Positions 18,317-47,234 of a DNA stretch of 64,000 bases are shown here, piece after piece. The DNA is taken from assembly GCF_002443295.1 (NCBI RefSeq), contig NZ_BAOS01000045.1, positions 1-64,000 of the forward strand, in the 5' to 3' direction. Source of the stretch: Candidatus Scalindua japonica (GTDB taxonomy: Bacteria > Planctomycetota > Brocadiia > Brocadiales > Scalinduaceae). Made by a program: the position numbers and the translations under genes. The notes under the pieces were generated by a model. That model had not been told where the DNA came from and ran no database searches. It saw only the letters and a list, made by a program, of their open reading frames with translations. Every line of letters begins with the position of its first letter. Position 1 is the first letter of the stretch.

Positions 18317-18722
18317 ATTGAGGTGTTTTGTTGCATGTTGCATTTTGACTGATTGATAATAGCACTTACTATTTATTTAATGTCTATCATATGAGAGAAA
18401 TTATAAAAATTTTTCAGGTACTCGGACTATATGACACTTGAACTTACATATTGTATGTGATAACATTAAGCTCTTTATTTCTCATATTTAAATCGAATGC
18501 TTATGTTTTAAACATTAGAAAATAATGATAAACAACTGTGAGACGGTTTGTGTATAAACACTTTACTAATTGTCACCGTCTTTCATTTTTTTATTTATTT
18601 AGTGTGTGGTTTGATATAATAAAAAAATATAAGAGAAGCCCTTAAAACGATCTAAGGATAGTGTAGACAACGGCTTCCTGAAAATCAACAAGTAAATCAG
18701 AAGGATTCTTAGATATAAGATT

Positions 18723-21044
18723 ATGAAGAGTACTAATTGGTGGAAATATCTACTTGCAGTTCTCGTTGTGGGTGCGTCAGGTGTTATATTTATGGGGTTC
18801 AGTACATATAAAGACGCTCCTCCAAAACCTGATTATATTTCACCTGAAGGTGTGGAAATTGTTCAAAAGTCTGCTGTCGAACGTGGACAACTGGTCTTCC
18901 AGAAATACGCATTGATGGAGTACGGAAGCATGTTTGGAGATGGTGCTGCCCGTGGACCGGACTTTACTGCCGAAGCGCTCCACCGTATAGCGGTTGATAT
19001 GAATAATTATTACGGCAGGCAGGTTACAGATGGAAATCTGAGCGAGTTGTCTCAAATAGAAAAAGATGGTATTTCTGTTCAAGTCAGGCGAGAGCTCAAA
19101 GAAAACCGCTACGACATGGAGAGAAATATTGTAGTCCTTACTGAGGGATATGCGTACGCGGCAGAACAGCTGGTCGATTACTATAGACTCAAATTTAAGG
19201 GAAATCACAAGGAGGCTTTTAAGCCGGCAGGTTATATTACAGACGATTCAGAACTAAATGATCTTTCTGCGTTCTTCTTCTGGGGCGCCTGGGTTTGCGC
19301 GGCAGAGAGACCAGGTGGCGAGTCCAGCTATACACATAACTGGCCTTTTGATGAATATGCCGGGAATGTTCCAACACCGTCAGTAATATTGTGGAGTGTT
19401 ATTGGGATGCTGTTTCTGATTTTCGGTCTGGGTGCCGTCCTCTGTACTTACAGCTATTATTCCAAAGCTTCGCAGTTACAGGTGAAAGAAAATCCTGTTA
19501 ACAACAAAAGCGTTGAAGCTTCTATTCCAACGGCCACTCAACGTGCAGCTTACAAGTTTTTTGTAGTTGCGGTTGCACTGCTTTTCATCCAGATCGTGGC
19601 TGGTGTCCTGACGATTCACGATTTCGTTGGATTTACAACTTTTTTTGGCTACAATATTTCTGAATTTCTACAGATAACTATTACCAGAAGCTGGCATGTA
19701 CAGTTATCTATTCTGTGGATAGCAACCTGCTGGATAGCCGGTTCCATATTCCTTCTTCCCGGAATACACCGCCAGGAGCCAAACCGTCAGGTTCTCCTTA
19801 TCAATGTACTCTTCGGCTTACTTGTATCAGTGGTTGTAGGTATGTTAGTAGGCTGTTTTCTGGGGCCGAAGAACCTTCTTGGTGACAATTGGAGACTGTT
19901 TGGCAATCAGGGCTGGGAATTTGTTGAACTTGGGAAGGTATGGCAGATTGTTCTCTTTGCAGCGCTCATTATGTGGGCAGTCATTATTTACCGAGGGGTA
20001 AAACCGGCTTTGAAGGGACAATCCGCATTCTCTCTGCCGTATTGGATTCTCTACTCTGTTGTAGCTATTACTATTCTATTCCTGTCAAGCTTTGTGGGCG
20101 GGAAGAATACAAATTTCGTTATTGCAGATTTCTGGCGCTGGTGCGTCATTCACATGTGGGCAGAGTGCTTTTTTGAGGTTTTTACTACAATAGTTATTGC
20201 CTGCTACATGGTATTCATGGGTCTGGTTTCCCGACAGGGTGCTACCAGGGTAATTTACCTGGCAACGCTACTGTTTCTGGGTTCCGGTCTTCTTGGTATA
20301 TCCCATAACTTTTATTGGAATGCGAAACCAGCAGCTCTCATGGCAATTGGCAGTGTCTTCTCAACCCTCCAGGTCATCCCTCTTGTACTATTGACGCTTG
20401 AAGTATGGAAATTTGTTCGGATTCCGGGATATTCTATTAGACGATCAGAAGATTCAGCCGTTACAGGCTCCTCCTTTGGATTCTCAGAGGCATTTCTTTT
20501 CCTCATTGCCGTAAATTTCTGGAACTTTTTCGGTGCCGGTGTGTTTGGTTTGATTATAAACCTTCCGATAATAAATTACTACGAGCATGGTACCTATCTA
20601 ACAGTCAATCATGGCCACGCTGCTTTGATGGGTGTTTACGGTAATCTTTCGATAGCTGCTGTACTGTTTTGCAGTAGACATGTCATTACTTCCAGGCGCT
20701 GGAATGTAAGGCTGCTGCGTTCGACCTTCTGGGCAATAAATGTGGGACTTTTACTGATGGTGCTGATGGATACCTTTCCCGCCGGAGTGTTGCAATTCAG
20801 GTCGGTTGTAGAAAATGGCTACTGGGTAGCTCGCTCACAGGAATTTATTCTTGGCGGTGCCTTTCAGGTGTTGACCTGGATGCGTGCGGTAGGCGGTGTG
20901 CTCTTTTTTGCCGGAGTGATACCGTTACTCTATTTCATGGTATCACGACTGAACTCGCTCAAAGCTGCTGCAACAACACAGAAATCAGAAGAGCCGGTCC
21001 TTATTACAGAAGAGCTACCGGAGCGTGATGTGCAGGTAGCTTAA
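18723..21044 (+). CDS. norZ: qNOR-family heme-copper protein, candidate nitric oxide dismutase
   Basis: The 773-residue single-chain quinol NO reductase homologue begins with a helix and a large periplasmic domain (residues 30-215), followed by about 12-13 membrane helices. Heme ligand and active-site motifs: TRSWHVQ (His325), VIHMWAE (His477, Glu481; FeB His and Glu of NOR), and TVNHGHAALMGVYG (His630, His632). At the position where NO reductases have two consecutive FeB histidines (HH), this protein has SHNFYW, His528-Asn529. Loss of the third FeB His to Asn is the hallmark of putative NO dismutases (Nod, Methylomirabilis), which form N2 and O2 from NO. Function as Nod rather than qNOR is inferred. 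Monocistronic. Confidence 0.85.
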   Translation: MKSTNWWKYLLAVLVVGASGVIFMGFSTYKDAPPKPDYISPEGVEIVQKSAVERGQLVFQKYALMEYGSMFGDGAARGPDFTAEALHRIAVDMNNYYGRQVTDGNLSELSQIEKDGISVQVRRELKENRYDMERNIVVLTEGYAYAAEQLVDYYRLKFKGNHKEAFKPAGYITDDSELNDLSAFFFWGAWVCAAERPGGESSYTHNWPFDEYAGNVPTPSVILWSVIGMLFLIFGLGAVLCTYSYYSKASQLQVKENPVNNKSVEASIPTATQRAAYKFFVVAVALLFIQIVAGVLTIHDFVGFTTFFGYNISEFLQITITRSWHVQLSILWIATCWIAGSIFLLPGIHRQEPNRQVLLINVLFGLLVSVVVGMLVGCFLGPKNLLGDNWRLFGNQGWEFVELGKVWQIVLFAALIMWAVIIYRGVKPALKGQSAFSLPYWILYSVVAITILFLSSFVGGKNTNFVIADFWRWCVIHMWAECFFEVFTTIVIACYMVFMGLVSRQGATRVIYLATLLFLGSGLLGISHNFYWNAKPAALMAIGSVFSTLQVIPLVLLTLEVWKFVRIPGYSIRRSEDSAVTGSSFGFSEAFLFLIAVNFWNFFGAGVFGLIINLPIINYYEHGTYLTVNHGHAALMGVYGNLSIAAVLFCSRHVITSRRWNVRLLRSTFWAINVGLLLMVLMDTFPAGVLQFRSVVENGYWVARSQEFILGGAFQVLTWMRAVGGVLFFAGVIPLLYFMVSRLNSLKAAATTQKSEEPVLITEELPERDVQVA

Positions 21045-42617: not shown

Positions 42618-44690
42618 ATGAAGAAAAAGGCTTGGATATTGGGATTCCTGAGTGCGGGAATACTAAGCTTGGCGCTGGTTCAAAGTGCTGGTGCTGGCTT
42701 TATACAGGGCACAAGGGTAAGGACAGAGCATCCATCCCCATTCCACGTAGCAGTTTCGCCTGATGGAGGTCAGTTGGCCCTCTGTAATCAGTCGGGACAT
42801 AGCGTGACGTTTGTTGATGCGAGGTCAAGAAAGGTGACCGGAGAGGTGCCTGTACAGGTACAGCCGGAAGCTAGTGTTTATACACAGGACGGTCGCACTT
42901 TATATGTCTGTAATGCTGAAAGTGACACTGTTTCCGTTATAGATGTAAGTAATAAGGCTGTTGTTAAAACAATTAAAGTTGGTGACTGGCCTTGTAGTGT
43001 AAAGTTGTCAAAAGACGGATCAAAGGCTTATGTATGTTGTTCAGGTAGTATGTGGAATACGGTAGATATTATCGACACCGCTATGAACAACAAAGTAGGT
43101 GAAATCAGAACTACTGATTACGGTCCAAGAGATATCGCTATCTCACCTGATGGAAAAACTGGTGCTGTAATCCTGGATACAACAGGTAAGATCAACAGGG
43201 GTGTTGATTTCGTTGATCTTGCAACAGGAAGGGTTATTGAGCACAGAAATATCTATCAGAGTTGTAACCTGAGGGGTGTAGAGTACACACCTGATGGAAA
43301 GTACGTTCTTGTCACAATGGAACAGCCAAAGAACTGGTTGCCTGTTTGTGAAGCAGAAAATGCTCAGATTTTCTCTAACAACCTTGCAGTTGTAGAGACA
43401 AAAAAAGGTGGTAAGGTAGCAAGTATGCCGCTTGATGAGCACAACAACTATGACGGAAATCCATATGGTGTAACAGTATCACCAGACGGAAAGTATGCTT
43501 TTATAGGTGTTAGAAGTATGCACAGGATAACAATTCTTGATCTGGAAAAGCTGTTGGACATCGTTGTTTCAAGCACACAAGAAGAGCTTGACGATATGAA
43601 GAATGACTTGACTCTTATGATTGACTATCTGGTAGACAGAGTAAATGTTGGTCTGGGTCCAAGTTCAGTTGTTCTTTCACCGGATGGTAAAACATTGTAC
43701 ACTGCTAACTATTTCACAAACAGTGTATCAGTTATTCAGGTAGGTGAAGAGCCTGTAGTAATAGCTACAATAAAAACAGGTCCTGATTGGGAGCCACTCG
43801 AAAGAGGTGAGCCTTTAACAGTTCCAGAAGTACATTACAGAGTGAAGCACTCTCCATATAAGAGTGAATTAGTACGATATGGACAGTTTTTGTTTAATGA
43901 AGCATCATGGACGCTGCAGGGTGAGTATTCATGTGCAAGCTGCCACTATGAAAGAGGTCAGACAACAGGCACGATCTGGGACCTTGGTGATGAAGGTTGG
44001 GGTAGCTGGAAGAACACGAAGTACATCAGGGGTGGAAGATATCTTCCTCCGTTCAGACACGAAGGTTTCACAGGACATCCTGATGAAATCGTTGGTGCAA
44101 CATCATCAATTGACAGGGTATGTGGTCGTGACCCTGGATTTGTGTTCAGAAGTGAGAATTTCTCTCCTGAAAGACTTGAGGCTTTGATTGCTTACATCAG
44201 GTCTTTAGAGTTCACAGGAAGTCCGTTCAGAAATGATGATGGTTCGTTGACTGAAGCTCAGAAAAGAGGATGGAAAGTATTTAGTGATCCAAAGGTTGGT
44301 TGCATAGAGTGTCATCCTGGAGATCCTAAGAATCCAAGGGCTCTGTTTAGTGATGCTCAGACTCATGATGTCGGAACCGGAAGAGTCGGTAGAGATGGTT
44401 TCAGGACAACACCTGGAGCTGTTTTTAATACTACTGTTCTTGAATCAGGTGTAGAGCCTTATAGTGAAGAGTACGATGTGCCAATTATCGGACTTGATCT
44501 TGTAAAAGAGTTTGATACTCCAACATTGAGAGATATCTACGCTTCAGGTACATATTTCCATGATGGTAGTGCGCAGACTTTGATGAATACTATTGACAAC
44601 ACTTGCACAACAAAAGACATGCATGGTATTACATCACATCTGTCTAACCAGGAGTTGCAGGATCTTGTGGAGTTTATGAAGGCTTTATAA
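42618..44690 (+). CDS. hzsBC: hydrazine synthase, fused beta-gamma subunits
   Basis: The 690-residue exported fusion has a signal peptide (about residues 1-26). A seven-bladed YVTN/NHL-type beta-propeller (about 30-385; blades such as VAVSPDGGQLALCNQ, YTQDGRTLYVCNAESD) is the beta subunit. From about 415 a diheme cytochrome c peroxidase-like gamma domain follows, with CASCH (439-443) and CIECH (562-566). In Kuenenia these are separate genes (kuste2859 and kuste2860); the fusion is known from Scalindua. The gamma subunit houses the heme that makes hydroxylamine from NO; the alpha subunit condenses it with ammonia to hydrazine. RBS GGAGGTGA supports the ATG. Confidence 0.95.
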   Translation: MKKKAWILGFLSAGILSLALVQSAGAGFIQGTRVRTEHPSPFHVAVSPDGGQLALCNQSGHSVTFVDARSRKVTGEVPVQVQPEASVYTQDGRTLYVCNAESDTVSVIDVSNKAVVKTIKVGDWPCSVKLSKDGSKAYVCCSGSMWNTVDIIDTAMNNKVGEIRTTDYGPRDIAISPDGKTGAVILDTTGKINRGVDFVDLATGRVIEHRNIYQSCNLRGVEYTPDGKYVLVTMEQPKNWLPVCEAENAQIFSNNLAVVETKKGGKVASMPLDEHNNYDGNPYGVTVSPDGKYAFIGVRSMHRITILDLEKLLDIVVSSTQEELDDMKNDLTLMIDYLVDRVNVGLGPSSVVLSPDGKTLYTANYFTNSVSVIQVGEEPVVIATIKTGPDWEPLERGEPLTVPEVHYRVKHSPYKSELVRYGQFLFNEASWTLQGEYSCASCHYERGQTTGTIWDLGDEGWGSWKNTKYIRGGRYLPPFRHEGFTGHPDEIVGATSSIDRVCGRDPGFVFRSENFSPERLEALIAYIRSLEFTGSPFRNDDGSLTEAQKRGWKVFSDPKVGCIECHPGDPKNPRALFSDAQTHDVGTGRVGRDGFRTTPGAVFNTTVLESGVEPYSEEYDVPIIGLDLVKEFDTPTLRDIYASGTYFHDGSAQTLMNTIDNTCTTKDMHGITSHLSNQELQDLVEFMKAL

Positions 44691-44706
44691 AATTCATTAA
44701 TATGGT

Positions 44707-44734
44707 GATAGTCTCAGCTGTTAAGGAGACTATC
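44707..44734 (+). terminator. intercistronic hairpin between hzsBC and hzsA
   Basis: Arms GATAGTCTC and GAGACTATC pair perfectly over 9 bp around a 10-nt loop. There is no U-tract, so it is more likely an mRNA-stability or processing element that sets subunit ratio than a full terminator. Confidence 0.55.
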
Positions 44735-44810
44735 ATCAGTTGTGGATTCAACGTAAAAAGACTTATTAGTGTTTCATTTTAATATTAAAAGGAAAGGAGT
44801 AAACCAACTT

Positions 44811-47234
44811 ATGAAGAAGGGATTTTTGAAGTCTATGGCCCTGGTTGGTGTTGTTGCTATATGGGGGCTGTTCAGCAGTGCCGACTCCCAGGCTCAAATC
44901 ATGACAGGTGGAGCTAAACCTGGCAAGGCGATCTGGGGAGACTACTGGGGTATGGCTAGAGAAATTCAGGGTGAGGTTGATACTGTAGTTTTCACTCAGT
45001 CTAAGCCGACAAGCGCTGGAGACCCATATCACCAATACCCTAATTATGTTTCTAATGATAGCAGGATTGTATCATACAACACGAAGACAAGAAGCTTGAA
45101 AGTTCTTACAAAGGACTTCAAGAGCGCTTTCGATCCATGTCTTTATTGGGATTGTAAGAAGTTAGCATTTGCAGGAGTTCACAAAAACGGTGGCGGTTGT
45201 CAGATTTGGGAGATAAACATTGACGGTTCAGGTCTCAGGCAGTTAACTGATGCCCCTGGTACATCAAGAAGTCCTCTCTATTATGCAGCCGGAGCTATTG
45301 AAGAAGGTAAAGGTAGAGTTATATCTAGAGACAGATACTTCGAAGGTGACTGGAACCATCGTGGTGATGTTGATAAGTTAGGTTTCCTGATGCTTGCTTA
45401 CTCACCTGACGGTGCAAAGGATGAGTTTGGTAGAGATCATAACTTTGACATCTACAGACTTGATCCTCAGGGTGGAAAGTCTATGGATAGAATCTGTGGT
45501 CATTTACTGGTTGGACTTACTATGCCAAACGTTGATACTGTTATGGACAAAATTACTTACAATGCTAGTTCGAATTTTGATCCTACATTAACACGTGACG
45601 GTAATATTATGTTCAGCAGCACACAGGGTAATGGTACTCATAACAACTCCAAGGGCAGTACATGCCTTCTCGTAGATAACTGGGATGGTTCATATCCAAG
45701 ACATATCTATGGTAACGAGGTTGATGAGCAGCCAAATGATCCTAAGGTTTCGGCTAGAGAGGCTTCAGATGGATATGTTTATTACATCGAGGCATTAGAC
45801 TGCAATTCTGGTATAGGTAATCTTGCAAGAGTTAGCTGGACTACTCCGCATTCTAAGACTCAGTCAAGGTTGAACCATGATGGAAGACTTTACAGAAGTC
45901 CACATCCAATGCCAGACGGACGTTTGATGGTGTCTTCTGCTGAAAGGCAGGATTTTGGTATTTACTACTTCTGTGCTGACAAAGGTACTGTATCTGAGTT
46001 AGTATATGATGATCCTGAGTGGAACGATCATCAGCCACAGCCAGTTTATCCACGTTACAAACCAAGATGGATAAACTCCTTTACAGCTGGAGCTGAATTT
46101 GGTGTTACAACAGTGACCTATCAGCCGTTTGACCAGGTTAGGGTTGAAGGATATCCTCACTCATGGAGTACAACAATATGTTTTGATACAACTTTGACAA
46201 ATCTACCAATTGGTCCTTATCCTCATCAGAGGGCAAAGGAAGTTGCACATGGTGACATCAAAGCTGTCAGGGCATTAAATGTAATCCTCCCGGATGAGCC
46301 TGATCCTAAGAGATATCTTCAGGGTGCTGGTGCACACCTTCTTGGTGGCGCTAAGTCAAGTACTAACTCTGGATCGTCTTTTTCTCAGAGGCGTATGTTC
46401 GGGTATCAGTATGTAGAAGATGATGGTTCAGTTGTGAGTTCACATCCTGGTGATGAAGCTTATTGCTGGCAGATTCTGGATGATAATGGTATGTCAGTTC
46501 AGACTCAGTTGTCATGGGCATATGTAAGACCATATGGTGGCAGAATATGTACTGGATGTCATTGGGGTTCTTATGATAAGAAGGGTTATTTGAACCTTCA
46601 CACAAAAGCACTTTATAACTGGTGGTTCAGTGACCTGAGCCATTATGATTCACCATTTATGTGGGCTAACTTGAGAGTTGACAAAAATGGTAAATATGCT
46701 GGTGTGAAACATGGTGAAGACGTAGTTGTTCCTGCCGATGTATATTACGGTGGTGCTTCAGGTACTACTTCAGCAGCAGTTGAAGGATTGAACATTGATA
46801 AGTTGAGAACTGTTGACTTCAGAAGAGACATTCAGCCGATCATTGACGCTAAATGTGCTTCTTGTCACAATTCTTCTCAGTCTCCTAATCTGAGTGGAAG
46901 TACTGATCTGGTATCTGTTGATGGCATAGCCGCTTTCAGCAAATCATATAACAGTCTTCTGGCTCCTCAGAGAGGTAGAGACACTAACATCGGTGGTAAG
47001 TATGTTAACCCAAGTGCTGCTATAAACAGTCTTCTAGTCTGGAGACTTTATGAAGAAGAACTGTCACAGTTCGCACCAAGGGCTAATCCTATGCCTGTTG
47101 CAGGAAGGGTTATGCATAACAAAATCTTAACACCAGAAGAGAGATACTTATTTGTTGAATGGGTAGACATGGGTGCACAGTGGGACAATATTCAAGGTCC
47201 TGACCCATACCCAGGATATCGTGGTAACAAATAA
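44811..47234 (+). CDS. hzsA: hydrazine synthase alpha subunit
   Basis: The 807-residue exported protein is almost the same length as the Kuenenia alpha subunit (kuste2861). A signal peptide (about residues 1-29) is followed by a six- or seven-bladed propeller region, then a middle domain with CTGCH (580-584), just after SWAYVRPYGGRI, and a C-terminal domain with CASCH (682-686). The alpha subunit holds the heme/zinc site where hydroxylamine and ammonium combine to hydrazine. ATG at 44811 is preceded by GGAAAGGAG; a GTG at 44769 is in frame but has no RBS. It closes the hzs operon before a strong terminator. Confidence 0.96.
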   Translation: MKKGFLKSMALVGVVAIWGLFSSADSQAQIMTGGAKPGKAIWGDYWGMAREIQGEVDTVVFTQSKPTSAGDPYHQYPNYVSNDSRIVSYNTKTRSLKVLTKDFKSAFDPCLYWDCKKLAFAGVHKNGGGCQIWEINIDGSGLRQLTDAPGTSRSPLYYAAGAIEEGKGRVISRDRYFEGDWNHRGDVDKLGFLMLAYSPDGAKDEFGRDHNFDIYRLDPQGGKSMDRICGHLLVGLTMPNVDTVMDKITYNASSNFDPTLTRDGNIMFSSTQGNGTHNNSKGSTCLLVDNWDGSYPRHIYGNEVDEQPNDPKVSAREASDGYVYYIEALDCNSGIGNLARVSWTTPHSKTQSRLNHDGRLYRSPHPMPDGRLMVSSAERQDFGIYYFCADKGTVSELVYDDPEWNDHQPQPVYPRYKPRWINSFTAGAEFGVTTVTYQPFDQVRVEGYPHSWSTTICFDTTLTNLPIGPYPHQRAKEVAHGDIKAVRALNVILPDEPDPKRYLQGAGAHLLGGAKSSTNSGSSFSQRRMFGYQYVEDDGSVVSSHPGDEAYCWQILDDNGMSVQTQLSWAYVRPYGGRICTGCHWGSYDKKGYLNLHTKALYNWWFSDLSHYDSPFMWANLRVDKNGKYAGVKHGEDVVVPADVYYGGASGTTSAAVEGLNIDKLRTVDFRRDIQPIIDAKCASCHNSSQSPNLSGSTDLVSVDGIAAFSKSYNSLLAPQRGRDTNIGGKYVNPSAAINSLLVWRLYEEELSQFAPRANPMPVAGRVMHNKILTPEERYLFVEWVDMGAQWDNIQGPDPYPGYRGNK

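What the first reader, a model, noticed from the sequence alone, without database searches (positions are those of the whole stretch)
18723..21044. qNOR homologue with His-Asn at the third FeB ligand: candidate NO dismutase in an anammox genome
The protein has the full qNOR layout, yet the canonical HH pair of FeB ligands is SHNFYW (His528-Asn529), while His477 and Glu481 and the heme ligand pair His630/His632 are kept. His-to-Asn at this site marks putative NO dismutases, which turn 2 NO into N2 and O2. An anaerobe with NO as a central intermediate could detoxify NO or make internal oxygen this way. The surrounding residues (FYWNAKP, SVFSTLQVIPL) also differ from the usual NOR sequence.
Basis: partly seen in the sequence, partly recalled or inferred. 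Interest (0 to 1): 0.85.

Follow-up and report, generated by a model that had tools for sequence, protein, structure and literature searches.

The report
Candidate NO dismutase in marine anammox
A marine anammox bacterium (genus Scalindua) carries a conserved membrane enzyme related to nitric oxide reductases that has the altered active site of the proposed oxygen-making "NO dismutases"; the gene family is already known and had been noted in Scalindua, but what it does in a strict anaerobe is untested and can be tested.

Summary
ORF 18723-21044(+) encodes a 773-aa qNOR homologue, with His528-Asn529 where qNOR has FeB ligands His559-His560. The alignment is in register and self-checks on the published Geobacillus qNOR residues. 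Two more Nod marks are present: Glu581 is Gln550, and quinol-site Glu332 and Asp746 are both Gly. Quinol-site His328 is kept. Asn, Gln and loss of Asp746 occur together in all 107 His-Asn homologues compared; none occurs in 10 canonical qNORs. The His-Asn proteins form one branch (100/100), even with these columns masked; it includes Muricauda, one of the founding putative NO dismutases. The genome is anammox (hydrazine synthase lies in the window; genus Scalindua). The gene is in 9 of 13 Scalindua genomes, under purifying selection, without partner genes, behind a conserved promoter with a dyad operator. The genome has NirS and a cbb3 oxidase, with no canonical NOR and no NosZ. Best reading: a Nod-like enzyme that removes NO, with dismutation somewhat more likely than N2O formation. 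No member of this clade has a demonstrated activity in the papers read here, and nod in Scalindua was reported in one line in 2023, so this is a new member of a known kind.

The parts
18723..21044 (+). CDS of the Nod-like qNOR homologue (773 aa, qNOR layout, no haem c motif)
   Evidence: (no CXXCH)
20151..20153 (+). His477 = FeB ligand H508
20163..20165 (+). Glu481 = FeB-site Glu E512 (Glu485 = E516 also kept)
20304..20309 (+). His528-Asn529 = H559 kept, H560 replaced by Asn
20370..20372 (+). Gln550 = E581Q, the second Nod-type active-site change
   Evidence: criterion from PMC3413370
19617..19631 (+). His299-Gly303 = quinol-site H328 kept, E332 replaced by Gly
20895..20897 (+). Gly725 = quinol-site D746 lost
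20610..20618 (+). His630 and His632, haem b3 and haem b ligands (His325 at 19695-19697 is the other haem b ligand)
   Evidence: invariant; roles from knowledge of NOR structures
18438..18466 (+). Conserved promoter-like element TTGAAC-[TTACATATTGTATGTGA]-TAACAT: 17-bp spacer that is itself a dyad, probable operator
   Evidence: kept upstream of the other Scalindua orthologues whose upstream is held (0-4 mismatches in the 17-mer) and the only copy with <=1 mismatch in the genome; function inferred
42618..47234 (+). Hydrazine synthase genes (beta-gamma-type fusion 42618-44690, by position and domains; alpha 44769-47234): shows that the host is anammox; not part of the same operon

Best explanation
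The gene encodes a Nod-like member of the heme-copper superfamily that probably needs no electron donor. It sits in the membrane of a marine anammox bacterium and removes nitric oxide. Most likely two NO bind at the haem b3/non-haem metal site, whose metal has a His-His-Asn-Glu environment, and are converted to N2 and O2. The small amount of O2 formed would be reduced to water by the cbb3 oxidase of the same cell. Shown here: the altered active site, the loss of two acidic quinol-site residues and of any haem c, membership of the His-Asn clade, purifying selection, a single-gene promoter-like element, a genome that makes NO with NirS and has a cbb3 oxidase but no canonical NOR and no NosZ. Inferred: NO as substrate, N2+O2 as products, and coupling to cbb3.
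For: Residues: H560N, E581Q, E332G, D746G with the rest of the FeB and haem ligands kept. In 107 His-Asn against 10 His-His homologues, Asn560, Gln581 and non-Asp746 go together without exception. The His-Asn clade is 100/100 with the signature columns removed and holds Muricauda, which Ettwig 2012 names as a putative NO dismutase. No CXXCH in the protein and no cytochrome gene beside it in Scalindua, so no obvious electron entry. dN/dS 0.04-0.2. NirS in the own genome (447 bits) and in the nearest outside family; NosZ over its cut-off in only 1 of 34 His-Asn planctomycetes and not in Scalindua, the NirS + Nod, no-NosZ layout described for Methylomirabilis (PMC8906906). The own genome's strong heme-copper hits are CcoN and this protein only. 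In Bacteroidota the family sits near Rrf2-type regulators (40 of 71 loci) and some RIC/YtfE, Crp/Fnr and globin genes, which fits NO as substrate. Independent physiology: in a Scalindua culture cbb3 expression and activity depend on nitrite rather than on O2, cause unresolved (PMC13253579).
Against: No His-Asn protein has a demonstrated activity in the papers read. H328 and F336 are kept, unlike NC10-type Nod (H328T, E332R; PMC10286720). Marine nod-like genes tracked N2O and were argued to be NO reductases (PMC5723336). cbb3 also occurs in anammox genomes without this gene, and two His-Asn anammox genomes (G010, G015) show no strong CcoN hit. O2 would harm hydrazine metabolism. NC10 and HdN1 Nod sequences could not be fetched for a direct tree.
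Confidence: 0.5

Rival explanations
1. It is an NO reductase variant: the His-Asn clade still makes N2O from NO, using electrons from a donor other than quinol, and serves NO detoxification.
For: Both FeB-site glutamates (E512, E516) and H328 are kept. Nod-like genes in the ETNP were the only candidates for N2O formation and tracked the N2O maximum (PMC5723336). About ten Bacteroidota loci carry a NorC-like cytochrome plus a NorB-like subunit near the gene. NO-stress type neighbours.
Against: E581 (implied in catalysis) is Gln and D746 is lost without exception in the clade. Scalindua has no cytochrome partner gene nearby and the protein has no haem c. NosZ is absent in nearly all His-Asn planctomycetes tested, so the argument from complete denitrifiers does not hold there.
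Confidence: 0.33
2. It has another role: an NO sensor or scavenger, an NO-oxidising enzyme, or a protein whose metal is not iron, with NO turnover only as a side activity.
For: The Asn ligand and Gln581 would change the metal's redox potential (inference); the metal is unknown.
Against: All haem ligands and the other FeB-site side chains are invariant, which speaks for turnover; strong purifying selection on a 773-aa membrane protein.
Confidence: 0.12
3. It is an ordinary qNOR, the Asn being an alignment or sequencing artefact.
For: 36-38% identity to 3AYF and the same fold.
Against: Asn in 9 of 9 Scalindua copies and 107 of 107 clade members; no gap near the site; fully supported split from all His-His qNORs.
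Confidence: 0.02

Closest known systems
Putative NO dismutases (Nod) of Ca. Methylomirabilis oxyfera (DAMO_2434/2437), strain HdN1 and Muricauda ruestringensis (Ettwig et al. 2012, PMC3413370)
   Same: qNOR layout without haem c; H560N; E581Q; damaged quinol site; same clade as Muricauda species (53-54% identity)
   Different: Scalindua keeps H328 and F336; the host is an anammox autotroph with no demonstrated need for O2; direct comparison with the NC10 and HdN1 proteins was not possible
'qNOR-related' / nod-like qnorB of marine oxygen-deficient zones (Fuchsman et al. 2017, PMC5723336; also PMC10286720)
   Same: Active-site changes of Nod, more variable quinol site, wide taxonomic spread
   Different: Here tied to a named host lineage, with promoter, selection and genome context
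Quinol-dependent NO reductase qNOR (Geobacillus 3AYF, Alcaligenes 8BGW, Neisseria 6L3H)
   Same: Fold (TM 0.86/0.88 to 3AYF), haem ligands, H508, E512, E516, H559
   Different: H560, E581, E332 and D746 all replaced; separate clade
nod reported in two Ca. Scalindua MAGs (PMC10359470), and Scalindua norB/norZ reads, 40% of all norB/norZ reads in the Arabian Sea (PMC4830246)
   Same: Very probably the same gene family in the same genus (not checked sequence by sequence)
   Different: Those reports give one line each, without residues, selection, regulation or distribution over the genus

Membership tests
Putative NO dismutase (Nod) | Asn in place of FeB ligand His560 | tested here: met
   N529
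Putative NO dismutase (Nod) | Gln in place of a Glu close to the catalytic centre (taken here as E581) | tested here: met
   Q550; criterion in PMC3413370, which does not number the residue in its text
Putative NO dismutase (Nod) | No proper quinol site: E332 and D746 replaced | tested here: met
   G303 and G725
Putative NO dismutase (Nod) | His328 and Phe336 also replaced, as in the environmental nod clones of PMC10286720 | tested here: not met
   H299 and F307 kept. H328 is kept in many other members of the His-Asn clade too
Putative NO dismutase (Nod) | Same clade as a founding putative Nod, apart from true qNORs | tested here: met
   100/100 with signature columns masked; Muricauda inside
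Putative NO dismutase (Nod) | Groups with the NC10 and HdN1 Nod proteins themselves | not tested
Putative NO dismutase (Nod) | 2 NO -> N2 + O2 activity | not testable with these tools
   needs biochemistry
qNOR (quinol-dependent NO reductase) | Three His FeB ligands and Glu581 | tested here: not met
qNOR (quinol-dependent NO reductase) | Quinol-binding H328, E332, D746 | tested here: not met
   only H328 kept
qNOR (quinol-dependent NO reductase) | qNOR fold and cytochrome-c-like domain without haem c | tested here: met
cNOR | Separate haem-c subunit (NorC) encoded beside it | tested here: not met
   no such gene next to it in Scalindua

The most novel reading that the evidence does not exclude
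Two anammox lineages acquired Nod-like enzymes independently (Scalindua and a second genus of the same family; one clade rejected, AU p 6e-9). In Scalindua the enzyme makes O2 from NO inside an obligate anaerobe and the cbb3 oxidase respires it. Net, 2 NO + 4 e- + 4 H+ -> N2 + 2 H2O: an energy-conserving NO safety valve without N2O. This would explain why cbb3 in Scalindua responds to nitrite even without O2.
Probability: 0.25. Interest if true: 0.85.

Novelty: new member of a known kind. Interest (0 to 1): 0.5.

Why it matters
[quoted passage not shown] If this enzyme dismutates NO, marine anammox has a route from NO to N2 that bypasses both hydrazine and N2O, and an internal O2 source in an oxygen-sensitive cell. 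If it reduces NO, Scalindua would be a direct N2O source in oxygen-deficient zones. Either answer affects N2O and N2 budgets, and enrichment cultures exist in which 15N/18O tests can be done.

Tried and rejected
(1) 'Artefact or off-register Asn': rejected. (2) 'True qNOR with intact quinol site': rejected. My first reading by eye took the haem-b ligand H325 (motif WHVQ) for the quinol-site His; the numbered alignment places H328 at H299. (3) 'Strict co-occurrence of the Nod-like gene with cbb3 in anammox': not found; CcoN occurs without it and the reverse. (4) 'The operator marks a regulon': no second site with <=1 mismatch in the genome; the sites with 2 mismatches lack the promoter context and mostly lie in ORFs. 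(5) 'HN plus NosZ shows NOR': only 1 of 34 His-Asn planctomycetes has NosZ above cut-off; most other hits are short C-terminal matches, probably the CuA domain of Cox2. (6) Fetching NC10/HdN1 Nod: the one genome-contig scan returned the 80 nearest loci, without NC10; the genome search cannot be centred on a locus. (7) IMG/VR gave one locus only, with the FeB helices missing. (8) Two literature searches for a purified or anammox Nod found nothing further. (9) A plasmid search returned only proteins below 60% identity; the five used are all of His-His type.

Full report
WHAT IS THERE. The window belongs to a 4.81-Mb, 47-contig genome. Hydrazine synthase genes lie in the window itself at 42618-47234, and the nearest named relatives of the gene are Ca. 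Scalindua MAGs at 79-92% identity, so the host is an anammox bacterium of that genus. The ORF at 18723-21044(+) is a 773-aa protein that aligns over its full length with solved qNORs (3ayf, E 3e-167). It has the COX1 and NorB cytochrome-c-like domains and no CXXCH haem-c motif. AlphaFold2 (22-row alignment, pLDDT 77, pTM 0.81) gives a model whose best PDB match is 3ayf, TM 0.86/0.88. Local confidence just after the site (residues 532-539) is low, so I draw no geometric conclusion from the model.

ACTIVE SITE. In a MAFFT alignment numbered by 3AYF the qNOR positions read H328 E332 F336 H508 E512 E516 H559 H560 E581 D746 in 3AYF, as they should. In the window protein they read H G F H E E H N Q G. 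H560N and E581Q are the two active-site changes by which Ettwig et al. (PMC3413370) defined putative NO dismutases, together with loss of the quinol site. E332 and D746 are lost, H328 and F336 kept. Over all homologues collected, 107 with His-Asn and 10 canonical His-His, Asn560, Gln581 and non-Asp746 occur together without a single exception. Other positions fixed differently in the two sets are D73, G188, H205, G228, M478, I526 and A534.

TREE. With the signature columns deleted, a 53-row IQ-TREE tree splits all His-His qNORs from all His-Asn proteins at 100/100. Muricauda, named a putative NO dismutase by Ettwig 2012, is inside the His-Asn side. Scalindua forms one clade (100/100) near planctomycetes outside its class; a Myxococcota sequence nests with those, which suggests transfer. 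A second anammox genus of the same family (G015 and G016, both with hydrazine synthase) carries a His-Asn protein from a different subclade. Holding the two anammox groups together is rejected (AU p 6e-9), so anammox bacteria probably acquired this kind of enzyme at least twice.

DISTRIBUTION AND SELECTION. Present in 9 of 13 genomes of the genus, in both genomes of the second genus, and in none of the 33 genomes of the other anammox family sampled. In a spread of 392 Planctomycetota, 64 have a match at E <= 1e-40; the sequences read from that list are His-Asn at 46% identity and above and His-His at 39% and below. Pairwise dN/dS within Scalindua is 0.04-0.2. The order purH, 3D-domain lipoprotein gene, nod-like gene, nucleoside phosphorylase gene, MoxR ATPase gene is kept, as far as contigs reach, in several Scalindua contigs (domains), with no redox partner gene.

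REGULATION. Upstream sequences are otherwise unalignable, but one element is kept: TTGAAC, a 17-bp dyad TTACATAnTGTATGTGA, then TAACAT/TAAAAT/TAATGT/TAATAT. It is found with 0-4 mismatches in the 17-mer on other Scalindua contigs (L032, L008, L035, L029, L027, L028), and the window's is the only copy with <=1 mismatch in the genome. This looks like a sigma-70-type promoter with an operator in its spacer; the regulator is unknown. In Bacteroidota the homologue lies near an Rrf2-family regulator in 40 of 71 loci, 27 of them within 700 bp, and in some loci near RIC/YtfE, Crp/Fnr and truncated-globin genes. That is a nitrosative-stress context and supports NO as the substrate, without telling NOR from Nod.

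GENOME CONTEXT. The own genome has NirS (447 bits) and CcoN of a cbb3 oxidase (375 bits). The only other strong heme-copper hit is this protein; no NosZ above cut-off. NirS without NosZ is also seen in most of the nearest outside family (f31), of which several genomes have two His-Asn copies. cbb3 is not strictly linked to the gene within anammox.

MECHANISM. The enzyme keeps haem b, haem b3, the other FeB-site side chains and both FeB-site glutamates, but has lost acidic residues of the quinol site and has no haem c. An electron-neutral reaction fits best: 2 NO -> N2 + O2. The O2 could be reduced by cbb3. A Scalindua study found cbb3 expression and activity to depend on nitrite, not on O2, and left the reason open (PMC13253579). 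Internal O2 from NO would explain it, but whether that strain carries this gene was not checked. The main rival is N2O formation with an unknown donor, argued for marine nod-like genes from their depth profiles (PMC5723336). I put dismutation at 0.5 and NO reduction at 0.33.

NOVELTY. PMC10359470 already states that two Ca. Scalindua MAGs have nod, and PMC4830246 assigned 40% of norB/norZ reads in the Arabian Sea to Scalindua. New here, as far as the held library shows: the residue-level analysis, the exceptionless covariation, two acquisitions in anammox, the single-gene promoter element, and the proposed link to the nitrite-dependent cbb3. I file the protein as a Nod-like clade member and Nod candidate, not as an established NO dismutase: one strict criterion (H328 replaced) is not met and activity is untested.

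Noticed in passing
L051, L057, L062, L065, L068, L070, L082, L087, L099, L106 (e.g. L065:4130-5900): A two-gene unit beside or near the Nod-like gene in Bacteroidota: a NorC-like single-haem cytochrome and a NorB-like subunit with HHIY at the FeB pair but without the first FeB His and the NOR glutamates (GSMVGSWN in place of HLWVEGTWE), and AHTMGA in place of AHGHLA at the haem ligands. An unusual heme-copper pair that may be a functional partner.
   Followed up: partly
window 18438-18466: Promoter-like element with a dyad filling the 17-bp spacer, kept across Scalindua and unique in the genome; a gene-specific regulator is implied.
   Followed up: yes
L112:5001-6580: A 231-kb IMG/VR contig carries a nod-like ORF that reads in frame but lacks the helices with the FeB ligands; deletion, misassembly or a truncated passenger gene.
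   Followed up: partly
L016, L017 (G015, G016): A second anammox genus has a His-Asn enzyme from a different subclade, with H328 and D746 replaced by Ile and Val: an independent acquisition.
   Followed up: yes
L039-L043, L047 (upstream of the Nod-like gene): A DUF1800 gene followed by a secreted partner gene (DUF1501-like by eye, not scanned) lies directly upstream of the Nod-like gene in the nearest planctomycete relatives; role unknown.
   Followed up: partly
G190, G219, G288, G323: Planctomycetes with NirS, two distinct His-Asn copies (about 62% and 46% identical to the window protein) and no NosZ above cut-off.
   Followed up: partly
L019 (G014): A relative in the same family lacks the His-Asn gene but has a canonical HHYYW NorB-like protein, so NO handling differs between genera of this anammox family.
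   Followed up: no
G004, G006, G008, G009: Same-genus genomes without a hydrazine synthase alpha hit; probably incomplete MAGs, not examined further.
   Followed up: no
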